DNA of 33,895 bases from Chitinophagales bacterium (GTDB lineage: Bacteria; Bacteroidota; Bacteroidia; Chitinophagales; UBA2359), in assembly GCA_020629005.1 (NCBI GenBank), contig JAHDEE010000007.1, positions 1 through 33,895 on the forward strand. Direction: 5' to 3'. Below are positions 1,762-32,040 of this stretch, piece after piece. A model generated the notes under the pieces. That model was not told where the DNA came from. It saw nothing but the letters and a program-made list of their open reading frames with translations, and ran no database searches. Position numbers and translations under genes: made by a program. The first letter of the stretch is position 1, and each line of letters begins with the position of its first letter.

Positions 1762-1780
1762 TGCTACAAAGACGGTCCTT

Positions 1781-1957
1781 TCAAAATAGCCTCGATAGTA
1801 GTGGAAATAGCGGCGCTATGCAGGTGCTGAGCGCCCGGCAGGCATGGCTCCCATAAGGAGACATGGATGCCGGTGCAGCGAAGCCCTGCATAGTGCCGCT
1901 ATTGCAACGGATAGCGAGCAGACAGATACTACAAGGCCATGCCCTTTCGCTCCAAAA
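1781..1957 (-). repeat. Structured intergenic repeat, copy A
   Basis: Read on the minus strand this 177-nt element starts TTTTGGAGCG, has the box GCTATCCGTTGCAATA, an apical GTCTCC, and ends with AGGCTATTTTGA. Arms at 1806-1824 and 1885-1903 pair over 19 positions with one wobble. An inner stem pairs CCGGCA with TGCCGG and CATG with CATG. Copies B (31823-31999) and C (17371-17550) share the boxes and architecture with different arm sequences. The open frame across it (1844-2110) is explained by the repeat and is not called. The rest of the gap 1762-2102 holds only the promoter of the next gene. Confidence 0.8.
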
Positions 1958-2978: not shown

Positions 2979-4481
2979 ATGCCAACAGCTGAAGCGATAG
3001 CACCTGTACTGAGCAATAGTCAAAAAGGCTTGTTGACAAGTTTGCTTTGTCTGCTCTGTCTGGCCTTTGTTGGACTGGCCTGGTATACCGGTCAATTGCT
3101 CTTGTTTGGCGTGCCGGCTGTGCTGCTTTTGGCCATGGTGGCACTTACGGATTTTACACCGATCTTTTGGCTGCTACTGCTTTCACTTCCCGTATCACTG
3201 CATATTGATTTATCGCCGAGCCTGGCCATTACGGCTCCCTCAGAGTTATTGATGGCAGGACTGATGATCGTCTGGGTTCTGCTAGTATTGATCAAGGAAA
3301 GGGCGATGCCTAAGGGATTCATGAATCATGTATTTTGCCTGTGGTTGGGCATCCATCTGACCTGGACATTGGTGACTGTGTTCTTTGCAGCCAATAAGCT
3401 AGTGGCTCTGAAATTCTTTCTGGCCAAGCTTTGGTTTATCATTCCATTTGTGTTTCTATCCGGAATCGTGCTTAAGAAATGGAAGAACATACGCATTGCC
3501 GTTTGGTGTCTTTTTGTACCATTGCTACTAGTTGCCATCCAGACGCTGGTTCGTCATGCCAGCTATAATTTCTCCTTCGAAATGGCGAACAAGACGATGA
3601 CCCCGTTTTTCCCAAATCATGTGGATTATGCGGCGATGATAGTCGTGTTTTTCCCCTTGCTGTTGGTTGCCCGAAACTGGTATAAGCGGGGCAGTGTGGA
3701 GAAATCCTTTATCGATGTCGGATTGCTGATCTTTGTGGTCGCCATTTTCTTTAGCTACACGCGCTCGGCTATGGGTACCCTGCTTTTGATACCGGTGTTC
3801 CGATTAGTCTTTAAGCTGCGGCTGACACGAATTGCTGTAGCGGTCTCACTTTTGGCCATCCTGCTGTTTAGCAGCTACCTGATCATCGATAAAAACTACT
3901 TGAAGTATTCACCTGATTTTGAGCGCACGATCTACCATACAGACTTCGATGATCACTTGTCTGCCACATTAAAAGGGGAAGATGTCTCCTTTATGGAACG
4001 CATACACCGTTGGGTAGCGGCAGTAAGAATGTCAACCGTAAATCCGCTAACTGGTTTTGGGCCTTCTAATTTTTACGAGAATTACAAGACCTATACGGTG
4101 CTCGATTTTGAGACCTATGTAAGTGAAAATGAGGAGAGATCTACTACGCACAATTACTTCCTGTTGTTGCTGACGGAACAGGGCTTCATTGGCATGATCA
4201 TCTTTGGGATTTTTATCATCCTGATTTTTGTTGAGGGGGAACGAATTTACTTCGCTTGTCGGACAAAGCGGGACAGAGATTTTATGATGGCCATTTTGGT
4301 TTCGCAGTTGATTATCTTGTTCAATATCATGATGGCAGACTTGATCGAAACCGATTGTATCGGAACCCTGTTCTTTATGAACATCAGTCTGATGATTCTG
4401 ATGGATTTGCGTAACCGCGGAATGCTTGATGAAGGAGAAGATCAGCTGGCAAAAGGGCAACTGAACTCTGCTGAAATATAA
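2979..4481 (+). CDS. O-antigen ligase/polymerase-like membrane protein (Wzy_C family)
   Basis: A 500-residue polytopic membrane protein with about 11-12 spans. Between residues about 300 and 385 is a large hydrophilic loop, followed by TTHNYFLLLLTEQGFIG with a conserved histidine (His391). This loop followed by H-N-x-(F/Y)-L-x-x-x-x-E-x-G-x-x-G is typical of the O-antigen ligase/Wzy_C family, whose members join or polymerise undecaprenyl-linked glycans on the periplasmic side. Ligase and polymerase cannot be separated from sequence alone; the neighbouring chain-length gene slightly favours a polymerase. The last codons and the stop lie inside a short tandem duplication (4473-4515). Confidence 0.87.
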   Translation: MPTAEAIAPVLSNSQKGLLTSLLCLLCLAFVGLAWYTGQLLLFGVPAVLLLAMVALTDFTPIFWLLLLSLPVSLHIDLSPSLAITAPSELLMAGLMIVWVLLVLIKERAMPKGFMNHVFCLWLGIHLTWTLVTVFFAANKLVALKFFLAKLWFIIPFVFLSGIVLKKWKNIRIAVWCLFVPLLLVAIQTLVRHASYNFSFEMANKTMTPFFPNHVDYAAMIVVFFPLLLVARNWYKRGSVEKSFIDVGLLIFVVAIFFSYTRSAMGTLLLIPVFRLVFKLRLTRIAVAVSLLAILLFSSYLIIDKNYLKYSPDFERTIYHTDFDDHLSATLKGEDVSFMERIHRWVAAVRMSTVNPLTGFGPSNFYENYKTYTVLDFETYVSENEERSTTHNYFLLLLTEQGFIGMIIFGIFIILIFVEGERIYFACRTKRDRDFMMAILVSQLIILFNIMMADLIETDCIGTLFFMNISLMILMDLRNRGMLDEGEDQLAKGQLNSAEI

Positions 4482-4515
4482 GCACTGTTGCATGGAAATA
4501 TAAGCACTGTTGCAT
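4473..4515 (+). repeat. 21-bp tandem duplication across the stop codon
   Basis: The 21-base unit that begins GAAATATAAGCACTG and ends TTGCAT occurs at 4473-4493 and again, identical, at 4495-4515, separated by a single G. The first copy contains the last sense codons and the TAA stop of the ligase-like gene. It looks like a recent slippage duplication that left the reading frame unharmed. Confidence 0.9.
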
Positions 4516-4570
4516 TGGGCACACAGTAATAGAAGACAGCCAAATTGTTCCCGGTATTCTTCCTTGGGCA

Positions 4571-5077
4571 TTAGTTTAGTTCTCCTACCGGATTGCTGTT
4601 GGCAATGCTTTTGAGTAGGGCCATTGATTCCGGGGAGCTCCAGTCTTTGAAGCCGGTATGACTGTAAACCACTTCTCCGTCCGCGCTCAGCAAATAGGTT
4701 TGTGGAATGGTAAATACACCAAGCATCTTGATATTTCTTTCACTGTGTAGAATAGTTACATCCATCGGAGTTCGCGATTGGAAACGCTGCAATTTGCTAA
4801 GCTTTTCTTCAGAGATCATGACGAACTCCATTTGATCACCGCCCAGCTCGGCACTGGCCTTTCTGATGGAAGGAACCTCTTGCATGCAGGGCGGACACCA
4901 GGTCGCGAAAAAGGTGACGAACATAGGTTTGCCTTTGAAATCCTCTTGGCTGACCCTTACACCCTCCAGGTTTTGAAGATCTAGTTGGAAGAAATCCACC
5001 TTGGGCTTGTTTTTGCAGCTTGCTGCAAAGAAAATCCAAAGGAACGCCAGGCAGAGTATGCGGGTAAGATTCGTCAT
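4571..5077 (-). CDS. TlpA-like thioredoxin lipoprotein
   Basis: This 168-residue protein starts with a lipoprotein signal ending FFAASC (lipid Cys21), so it should be anchored in the envelope and face the periplasm. A thioredoxin fold follows: KPMFVTFFATWCPPC with the redox pair Cys61/Cys64, and the cis-proline in TIPQTYLL (Pro125). The WCPPC pair and small insert match the TlpA/ResA group, which reduces disulfides in exported or heme-binding apoproteins. It is transcribed convergently with the polysaccharide genes and has no operon partner here. The divergent neighbour at 5399 carries a CxxCH heme site, and the window also encodes a DsbD that could supply electrons; both links are inference. 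The gap up to 5398 is promoter and leader sequence. Confidence 0.88.
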   Translation of the reverse strand: MTNLTRILCLAFLWIFFAASCKNKPKVDFFQLDLQNLEGVRVSQEDFKGKPMFVTFFATWCPPCMQEVPSIRKASAELGGDQMEFVMISEEKLSKLQRFQSRTPMDVTILHSERNIKMLGVFTIPQTYLLSADGEVVYSHTGFKDWSSPESMALLKSIANSNPVGELN

Positions 5078-7217: not shown

Positions 7218-7381
7218 CTAAGGGATAGGGAATCAATAACTGTCCGATTTTGACGCCGATGGAAATGATTTAGACGAGGCATTTTTTGACAGCATCCTTG
7301 TTGGCTGGTGGAGAAAAATAACGATGGATAAATCATTTCCAGCAAGTCAAAATGGACATTTATTGATTCGCTGTCCCTAAG
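7218..7381. repeat. Long imperfect inverted repeat, MITE-like
   Basis: The left arm (7218-7272) and the reverse complement of the right arm (7329-7381) agree at roughly 45 of 55 positions. Both contain GAATCAATAA, TGTCC, ATTTTGAC and TGGAAATGATTTA. A 56-base centre separates them. The element starts about 15 bases after a terminator and stops about 20 bases before the end of the RDD gene on the other strand. No open frame of note is inside. It could be a miniature transposable element or a structured RNA. Confidence 0.75.
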
Positions 7382-9358: not shown

Positions 9359-10051
9359 GTGGCTGGAAAAAGAAAACTCGAGAAGTTCGCGATGGTAAGC
9401 ACCTTTCCAAACACTTTCCAAAATTTTCGCTGGGAAAACCCAGTGCTAATTAACCATGAGGAAAAGGAAGTGGTACTTTCCGGAAAGTGGCGTTCAGAAT
9501 TCTTCCAAAATGAAAACCCAATCGTAATTGAATTGGCCTGTGGTTACGGCGAATACACCATCGGTCTTGCAGAACGATACCCAGAGAAGAATTTCATTGG
9601 TGTAGATATTAAGGGAAACAGGGTTTACCAGGGAGCTAAGTATGCCCTCGAAAATGAAATGTCAAATGTGGCCTTTGTACGCACAGACATTCGGCAGATT
9701 GAGTACTTCTTTGCAGCTGGGGAAATTGATGAGATATGGATCACTTTTCCTGATCCCTTTCGAAAAAAGAGACAAGCCAAAAACCGATTGACGGATTCGC
9801 AATTCCTGGACAGATATAGGAAGATTCTAAGGCAAGACGGTGTCATTCACCTGAAAAGCGATTCTGACATCATTTATGAGTACACCAAGGAAGTGCTTGA
9901 AGAGCTAAAATTGCCAGTATACGTAGATTGCGATAATATTGATGAAGCTGAGGGATTGGATCCTGTTTTGAAAGAAATTCAAACTCGCTATGAAAAGATC
10001 CATCGACAATTGAGACAAACAATCAAGTATATTCAATTCGGTCTCAATTAA
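9359..10051 (+). CDS. trmB: tRNA (guanine-N7)-methyltransferase TrmB
   Basis: A 230-residue class I methyltransferase that makes m7G46 in tRNA from S-adenosylmethionine. The AdoMet loop is IELACGYGEYT (about residues 57-67), the acidic strand end is FIGVDIKGNR, and WITFPDPFRKKRQAKNRL carries the TrmB signature; LKSDSDIIYEYTKEVL follows. I chose GTG at 9359 because it yields MAGKRKLEKFA, matching the usual short KL-KFA start of Bacteroidota TrmB; TTG 9341 lies in a -7 box and ATG 9392 would cut the conserved start. The stop overlaps by 4 bases the stop of the convergent TrpF-like gene. Confidence 0.93.
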   Translation: MAGKRKLEKFAMVSTFPNTFQNFRWENPVLINHEEKEVVLSGKWRSEFFQNENPIVIELACGYGEYTIGLAERYPEKNFIGVDIKGNRVYQGAKYALENEMSNVAFVRTDIRQIEYFFAAGEIDEIWITFPDPFRKKRQAKNRLTDSQFLDRYRKILRQDGVIHLKSDSDIIYEYTKEVLEELKLPVYVDCDNIDEAEGLDPVLKEIQTRYEKIHRQLRQTIKYIQFGLN

Positions 10052-17370: not shown

Positions 17371-17550
17371 TTTTGGAGCGCAGCATAGACGGCCGTGGAA
17401 ACCCCGGTCCTGTGCTGCGTTTGTATAAGCTACCCTGCCAGCTGTTCCTACTCGCGCTCTGCCGTCTCTCCGTAAACTATGAGCCAGCATAGCGCGGCAG
17501 TCACCACGCTGGCAGGGCAGCTTATACCACTGCGCCCAGGGCTATTCTGC
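17371..17550 (+). repeat. Structured intergenic repeat, copy C (diverged)
   Basis: A 180-nt element between convergent genes that starts TTTTGGAGCG and ends GGGCTATTCTGC, matching the ends of copies A and B. The arms at 17423-17442 and 17508-17527 pair at 19 of 20 positions, and CGCAGCA/TGCTGCG (17379-17385, 17414-17420) form a first stem. A GTCTC stretch sits at the apex as in the other copies. The second box is degraded (GCTGCGTTTGTATA). It could also stop transcription from both sides. Confidence 0.7.
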
Positions 17551-17576
17551 ACGGTCTCCCCATCGCGCAACCAAGG

Positions 17577-28768: not shown

Positions 28769-28841
28769 GGTGCGGTAGCTCAGTTGGTAGAGCACAGGAC
28801 TGAAAATCCTGGTGTCGGCGGTTCGACCCCGCCCCACACCA
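28769..28841 (+). tRNA. tRNA-Phe (anticodon GAA)
   Basis: A 73-nt cloverleaf: acceptor GGTGCGG/CCACACC, D arm GCTC-AGTTGGTA-GAGC, anticodon arm CAGGA-CTGAAAA-TCCTG with anticodon GAA, and T arm GGCGG-TTCGACC-CCGCC. The discriminator is A and CCA is not encoded, as usual in Bacteroidota. The acceptor stem has one C-A mismatch at pair 5-68, where related tRNAs normally pair. An independent promoter and terminator flank it. Confidence 0.95.
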
Positions 28842-31822: not shown

Positions 31823-31999
31823 TTTTGGAGCGAAAGGCCGCTGGCTTGTCGCGCCGAATTGCTTGCTATCCGTTACAATAAAGGCACGCTTCACTGCTTC
31901 ATGCATCCAGCTGCATGGTCTCCTAAGGGAGCCCCTGCAGCTGGCGCATTCAGTCAGTTCAGCGCACCTCTATTTTCACTTCTATCAAGGCTATTTTGA
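31823..31999 (+). repeat. Structured intergenic repeat, copy B
   Basis: A 177-nt element, exactly as long as copy A, with TTTTGGAGCG, GCTATCCGTTACAATA, apical GGTCTCC and a final AGGCTATTTTGA. Outer arms (31878-31890, 31961-31973) pair at 10 of 13 positions, and CCAGCTGCA/TGCAGCTGG (31907-31915, 31936-31944) form a perfect inner stem unlike that of copy A in sequence but placed the same. It sits between convergent genes. The rest of the 304-base gap is featureless. Confidence 0.8.
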
Positions 32000-32040
32000 C
32001 ACTGCATAGCTCATCGCAGCAAGCCTCAATGACAGAGCAA

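What the first reader, a model, noticed from the sequence alone, without database searches (positions are those of the whole stretch)
1781..1957. Three-copy structured intergenic element with compensatory changes (copy A)
This minus-strand element and those at 31823-31999 and 17371-17550 share four boxes in the same order (TTTTGGAGCG; GCTATCCGTTnCAATA; GTCTCC; AGGCTATTTTGA). Copies A and B are both exactly 177 nt. The arms between the boxes differ in sequence but still pair: A uses CCGGCA/TGCCGG where B uses CCAGCTGCA/TGCAGCTGG. Pairing kept while sequence changes points to selection on RNA or DNA structure. All copies are downstream of gene ends. Options are a non-coding RNA, a mobile hairpin element, or a transcription-end or mRNA-stability element.
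Basis: partly seen in the sequence, partly recalled or inferred. Interest (0 to 1): 0.75.

Follow-up and report, generated by a model that had tools for sequence, protein, structure and literature searches.

The report
Long-armed Flavo-1 mobile hairpin repeat
The three look-alike stretches are copies of a roughly 195-base hairpin-forming repeat, present about 460 times in this uncultured Chitinophagales genome; it is a long-armed form of a sequence family catalogued for years as the "Flavo-1" RNA, and it behaves like a mobile DNA element that lands between genes.

Summary
A, B and (more diverged) C belong to one family. The genome has 344 exact matches to its end boxes (0 in the control), about 460 copies after correcting for recall. 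Stems covary strongly: 29 of 33 pairs change on both sides; covariation score 0.691 against 0.189 in shuffles. Here the apical arm is much longer and hypervariable.

It behaves as a dispersed mobile element. Four orthologous sites differ in occupancy between this genome and a sister species. Copies 92-93% identical sit in different flanks. All 51 assessable copies are intergenic, without strand preference towards the upstream gene. Pairing is almost purely Watson-Crick (G.U 1.2%), which suits folded DNA better than RNA but proves neither.

The obvious mover, a Y1 (RAYT/IS200) transposase, was tested and not supported: 13 Flavo-1-bearing genomes have no detectable Y1 gene, one with 61 matches. 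The mover is unknown. Transcription and cellular function were not testable.

The parts
1762..1953 (-). The Flavo-1 strand is the + strand.
   Evidence: Reading; family alignment; boundary conservation; Flavo-1 hit 1784-1925 +; DNA fold z -5.8
31827..32019 (+).
   Evidence: Reading; profile hit 107.6 bits; Flavo-1 hit 31855-31996 -; DNA fold z -4.6
17375..17568 (+). Copy C, full element of a second subtype, in the gap between two convergent genes
   Evidence: Reading; profile hit 102.5 bits; 40 relatives by BLAST; absent at the orthologous site of the sister genome; DNA fold z -6.2
4412..4601 (.). Empty site: the sister genome G395 carries a copy (C518:2372-2555) in the orthologous interval, this window does not
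10048..10051 (.). Empty site: the stops of two convergent genes overlap here; the sister genome has a full copy (C210:3795-3975) between the same two genes

Best explanation
A non-autonomous, dispersed mobile hairpin element: a long-armed branch of the family that Rfam calls Flavo-1. The recognised part appears to be the pair of ends (T-tract + GGAGCG; GGCTATTTTGCAC...TCGYGG) plus a conserved core helix with purine-rich internal loops on the Flavo-1 strand. The outer and apical arms may have almost any sequence as long as they pair. Proposed mechanism: an enzyme acting in trans recognises the folded strand (hairpin or cruciform DNA) and copies or moves it into intergenic sites, in this genome mostly beyond stop codons. 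Shown: family membership, copy number, covariation, intergenic location, occupancy differences between sister species, near-identical copies in different flanks. Inferred: that the selected fold is DNA rather than RNA, and that a trans-acting enzyme moves it. The enzyme is not identified, and the Y1 transposases tested do not fit.
For: Copy number: 344 strict matches, 0 control, about 460 by recall 21/28. Family: Flavo-1 hits on the opposite strand, with the same core structure and sequence in short Flavo-1 copies of a Flavobacterium-like genus. Covariation. Mobility: four orthologous sites filled in one sister genome and empty in the other, in both directions; copies 92-93% identical in the element with dissimilar flanks, identity fading at the same two ends; patchy distribution, 38 of 395 Bacteroidota genomes and 52 of 61 within one genus. 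Site choice: 51 of 51 assessable copies intergenic, convergent gaps 22 of 51 vs 33 of 163 background (p = 0.0017), no strand preference. DNA-like pairing: 2443 Watson-Crick, 31 G.U, 15 A.C, 65 other cells.
Against: No enzyme, no autonomous copy, no target-site duplication and no transposition intermediate was found. All three Y1 genes of this genome have an element within 650 bp, but RAYT loci elsewhere do not and Y1-free genomes are full of Flavo-1. Most copies in this genome are old and diverged (median pairwise identity 68%), so activity may be low or past. G.U exceeds A.C 31 to 15 on the Flavo-1 strand and that strand folds better in 70 of 74 copies, which a single-strand RNA reading also predicts. 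For the orthologous sites the direction (gain or loss) is not proven.
Confidence: 0.72

Rival explanations
1. A structured non-coding or cis-acting RNA transcribed from the Flavo-1 strand, as Rfam files it (RF01705, sRNA), present in hundreds of copies.
For: Strong covariation, purine-rich conserved internal loops on one strand and lower folding energy on that strand in 70 of 74 copies, G.U twice as common as A.C. The 2010 survey marks Flavo-1 as a likely RNA, not cis-regulatory (PMC2864571).
Against: About 460 dispersed copies with site turnover between sister species; no strand preference towards the upstream gene; G.U only 1.2% of well-aligned cells. In the F. psychrophilum transcriptome Flavo-1 hits lay indistinctly sense or antisense to transcribed regions and many were outside them (PMC9723704).
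Confidence: 0.17
2. A transcript-end element (terminator, or hairpin protecting mRNA 3' ends) that works in both directions and was spread for that use.
For: Bias to gene 3' ends (37 of 51) and to convergent gaps in this genome. Very stable hairpin on either strand.
Against: No 3' bias in 31 Flavobacterium-type copies (12 nearest a 3' end, 19 nearest a 5' end) or in the small sister sample (4 vs 9). No U-run after the stem on the Flavo-1 strand, nor in Flavobacterium-type copies on the other strand. Conserved end boxes and loops go beyond what a terminator needs (inference).
Confidence: 0.08
3. A REP/BIME-type element moved by a Y1 (RAYT or IS200-type) transposase.
For: High-copy intergenic hairpin repeat; element start GGAGC recalls the tetranucleotide at the foot of REPs; the three Y1 genes of this genome each have an element within 650 bp.
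Against: The two RAYTs here are embedded in other repeat arrays. Of 20 RAYT loci in the Flavobacterium-like genus only 2 hold a Flavo-1, both more than 1 kb from the gene. Flavo-1 is present in 39 of 46 genomes with RAYT-model hits and 13 of 15 without; none of those 15 has any Y1_Tnp match, including the genome with 61 core matches.
Confidence: 0.07

Closest known systems
Flavo-1 RNA (Rfam RF01705)
   Same: Same core: TAGCC-GAT-G-AG-GGAAAT ... ATTG-AACGGA-AGC-GG, same helices and 3-nt internal loops, same GCTCC + A-tract end on that strand; many intergenic copies in both orientations.
   Different: Span of the match is 142 nt instead of about 76; very long, hypervariable arm with its own conserved loop boxes; spacer of about 30 nt before GCTCC; conserved GTGCAAAATAGCC start; most copies fall below Rfam's cut-off.
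REP/BIME elements with RAYT transposases (PMC3733652, PMC6006769, PMC2817692)
   Same: High-copy, intergenic, palindromic, present in hundreds of copies, dispersed without coding capacity.
   Different: About 195 bp rather than the 20-65 nt given for REPs; no association with Y1 transposase genes was found.
MITEs
   Same: Short, non-coding, dispersed, non-autonomous.
   Different: Ends GGAGC... and ...TCGYGG are not terminal inverted repeats; no target-site duplication was recognised.
Integron attC sites (comparison from general knowledge, not tested)
   Same: Works-like resemblance: conserved ends and unpaired bases, hypervariable but paired arms, folded single DNA strand recognised.
   Different: Dispersed over the whole genome rather than in a cassette array; the attC core boxes were not searched for.

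Membership tests
Flavo-1 (RF01705) | Match to the covariance model | tested here: inconclusive
   A 37.6, B 35.9 bits, below the 42-bit cut-off; another copy 45.9, above it; no hit for C
Flavo-1 (RF01705) | Core helices and conserved loop sequence | tested here: met
   Same structure ((((.((...((...((((and same boxes in 16 short copies from the Flavobacterium-like genus and in the copies here
Flavo-1 (RF01705) | Compact hairpin of about 76 nt | tested here: not met
   Model positions 1-76 spread over 142 nt, 74 nt of them inserted in the arm; hence 'variant'
Flavo-1 (RF01705) | Expressed as an RNA | not testable with these tools
   No expression data; literature only
REP/RAYT | Short palindrome of 20-65 nt | tested here: not met
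   About 195 bp
REP/RAYT | Cognate Y1 transposase gene flanked by the element | tested here: not met
   2 of 20 RAYT loci, both distant; 13 Flavo-1-bearing genomes without any Y1_Tnp
MITE | Terminal inverted repeats | tested here: not met
   End consensus GGAGCGAAAC / CTCGYGG
MITE | Target-site duplication | tested here: inconclusive
   Empty-site alignments with the sister are too diverged at the junctions
Integron attC | R and L core boxes, array next to an integrase | not tested
   No attC model was run; the genome-wide dispersal argues against an array

The most novel reading that the evidence does not exclude
Flavo-1, catalogued since 2010 as a structured RNA, is really a mobile hairpin read as folded DNA and moved by an as yet unknown enzyme that is not a Y1 transposase. 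It is the founding case of a class of 'covarying' mobile elements whose arms are free to change as long as they pair.
Probability: 0.35. Interest if true: 0.72.

Novelty: new variant of a known kind. Interest (0 to 1): 0.52.

Why it matters
Flavo-1 has been an orphan in RNA catalogues. If its copies are mobile DNA hairpins, covariation alone was misread as proof of an RNA, and other orphan 'RNA' motifs with many copies per genome deserve the same test (G.U scarcity, site turnover, lack of strand bias). It also points to an unknown mover that works without RAYT or IS200 genes. The long-armed form, with hundreds of diverged copies in one genome, gives a large natural data set on which bases are recognised and which only need to pair.

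Tried and rejected
RAYT/IS200 mobilisation: looked promising because all three Y1 genes of this genome have an element nearby, but locus and genome tests in the Flavobacterium-like genus were negative. A recent burst confined to this species: the strict pattern gave 344 vs 2 in the sister genome, but the sister has many copies with drifted end boxes, so that contrast was an artefact of the pattern. Per-copy matching of the left spacer and right tail (guide-like or target-duplication-like): no better than shuffled partners, direct or inverted. Searches for Flavo-1 on phage and plasmid records with one copy each: none (low sensitivity, since copies differ). Viral-contig scan with the 14-base core: 120 rows at the limit, which is in the range expected by chance for so large a collection, so not used. 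The Rfam model in the genome-wide search missed most copies.

Full report
WHAT IS THERE. The three stretches are real and related. Between the outer boxes A and B are 177 nt and C is 180. A BLAST search of the source genome (G000, 6.9 Mb, 456 contigs; the window is contig C6) with A returned 40 places, the number the tool scored, and C returned 40, largely other ones. The pattern GGAGCG-N142-168-GGCTATTTTG has 344 exact matches, 158 and 186 by strand, and none for the reversed control. In 327 kb of contigs a profile finds 28 full copies, none in the reversed sequence, and 21 of the 28 fit the strict pattern. That extrapolates to about 460 copies, about 1.3% of the genome. The 327 kb were partly chosen because they contain copies; the one stretch chosen mainly for length (100 kb of C341) has 5, which points to the same order of magnitude (about 350).

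ANATOMY. In copy A the tail ends directly at the TAG stop codon of the upstream gene.

STRUCTURE. RNAalifold predicts 33 pairs, 29 with at least one double change. Counted against controls: 89.2% of cells paired vs 60.9% in shuffles, 665 double-change cells vs 215, covariation score 0.691 vs 0.189, and at most 40% paired when the partner is slid by 1-3 columns. The structure was derived from this alignment, which favours it in the slid control, but the gap is very large. The three window copies fold far better than shuffled sequence as DNA (z -5.8, -4.6, -6.2), and A also as RNA (z -5.6).

RNA OR DNA. In pairs that are well aligned within each subtype, 2443 cells are Watson-Crick, 31 G.U, 15 A.C and 65 other, on the Flavo-1 strand. 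These pairs were pre-selected for at least 80% Watson-Crick cells, which lowers all other classes. G.U is thus 1.2%, lower than I would expect for an RNA of this divergence (general knowledge; no matched control was run). In sixteen short copies from the Flavobacterium-like genus, G.U is 2.6% even in minimum-energy folds that allow G.U, and the pair next to AGCCC is C-G, T-A or A-T in all sixteen. G.U is twice as common as A.C, and the Flavo-1 strand has the lower predicted energy in 70 of 74 copies, with purine-rich internal loops, so a single strand, the Flavo-1 strand, is probably what folds. Taken together this leans to folded single-stranded DNA but does not exclude RNA. Template-switch repair of imperfect palindromes could also produce Watson-Crick double changes and is not excluded.

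WHICH FAMILY. cmscan finds Flavo-1 (RF01705) on the opposite strand for A (37.6 bits) and B (35.9), below the 42-bit cut-off. Of 14 other loci most give Flavo-1 hits, one at 45.9 bits. The core pattern TAGCCNNGATNGNAGNGGNA occurs in 38 of 395 Bacteroidota genomes, concentrated in one Flavobacterium-like genus and in G000, and in 52 of 61 genomes of that genus. Copies from that genus are the short Flavo-1 with the same core and usually with GCTCC + A-tract at the end. Homologues with other arm lengths occur in G433 (another family of the order) and G398 (same family) (L063, L066). So the finding is a long-armed variant of Flavo-1.

MOBILITY. Comparison with G395: the gap holding C is 370 nt here and 134 nt there. 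A copy in L143 (1804-1993) is absent there together with a neighbouring palindromic repeat. Conversely G395 has a copy in the interval orthologous to window 4412-4601, and another between two genes whose stops overlap in the window (10048-10051). Four of four readable sites differ. Within this genome seven pairs of copies are at least 85% identical, several of them in dissimilar flanks (for example L035/L039 at 93% and L023/L029 at 92.6%; the 98% pair L029/L038 shares some flank and may be a larger duplication). Direction of change is not proven, because no outgroup was aligned.

CONTEXT. Of 74 unique copies 51 could be placed between two genes; none was inside a gene. Convergent gaps hold 22 (background 33 of 163; p = 0.0017), divergent ones 7. 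The nearest gene end is a 3' end for 37 and a 5' end for 14 (p = 0.0018). Orientation relative to the upstream gene is 16 vs 21. In 31 Flavobacterium-type copies all are intergenic but the 3' bias is absent. A transcriptome of F. psychrophilum likewise reports Flavo-1 hits sense or antisense without distinction, many outside transcribed regions (PMC9723704). This fits harmless landing sites better than a fixed transcript-end function.

THE MOVER. Three Y1_Tnp genes exist here: one IS200-type and two RAYTs, the RAYTs embedded in arrays of other repeats. In the Flavobacterium-like genus only 2 of 20 RAYT loci hold a Flavo-1, both distant from the gene. Among 61 genomes, Flavo-1 is found in 39 of 46 with RAYT-model hits and in 13 of 15 without. 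None of those 15 has any Y1_Tnp match, including the genome with the most copies, 61. Some of these genomes are incomplete drafts, but several are 99-100% complete. The mover therefore remains unknown.

LIMITS. Only unnamed or draft genomes were available; some counts rest on exact patterns. The gene calls are simple longest-ORF calls. The Flavobacterium-like genus is named by inference from its Flavo-1 content and the literature, not by a taxon label. No expression data were at hand. The copies used for context were mostly found by similarity to copy A.

Noticed in passing
window 7218-7381: A different palindromic repeat of about 165 bp with terminal inverted repeats (CTAAGGGATAG.../...CTGTCCCTAAG), more than 40 matches in the sister genome at 87-96% identity and further copies in L143 (2042-2205, 17502-17665); MITE-like.
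   Followed up: partly
L044 1365-1913; L045 1396-1941: Two RAYT genes (NF047646), each lying in an array of its own distinct repeat (CGGCGCGACGGGGACGTCACGCCG-type for L044; ATTCTTCAATTTCATTGGAGAAT-type for L045), probably their cognate REPs.
   Followed up: no
sister genome G395 (L173-L187): The end boxes have drifted together in the sister species: GGAGCNNAGCAG at the left and GGCTAT[GCAT/TCAT/TTTG]CACC at the right, while the body is conserved.
   Followed up: partly
all copies, left spacer and right tail: The same short motif TCGYGG occurs in the left spacer and at the right end of the consensus, a direct repeat at the level of the consensus but not matched copy by copy.
   Followed up: partly
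own genome contigs, e.g. C16, C25, C37, C50, C69, C89, C93: Copies lie within a few hundred bases of contig ends more often than contig lengths would suggest, so they or neighbouring repeats probably break the assembly.
   Followed up: no
L145 2922-3106: A copy with normal ends and core arms whose apical part is replaced by unrelated sequence.
   Followed up: no
Flavobacterium-like genus, G452, G466, G468, G470, G474, G481, G482, G490, G506: Nine of 61 genomes have no Flavo-1 core match although many congeners have 10-60; useful pairs for finding the mover.
   Followed up: no
window 28769-28841 +: A tRNA gene (68.2 bits).
   Followed up: no
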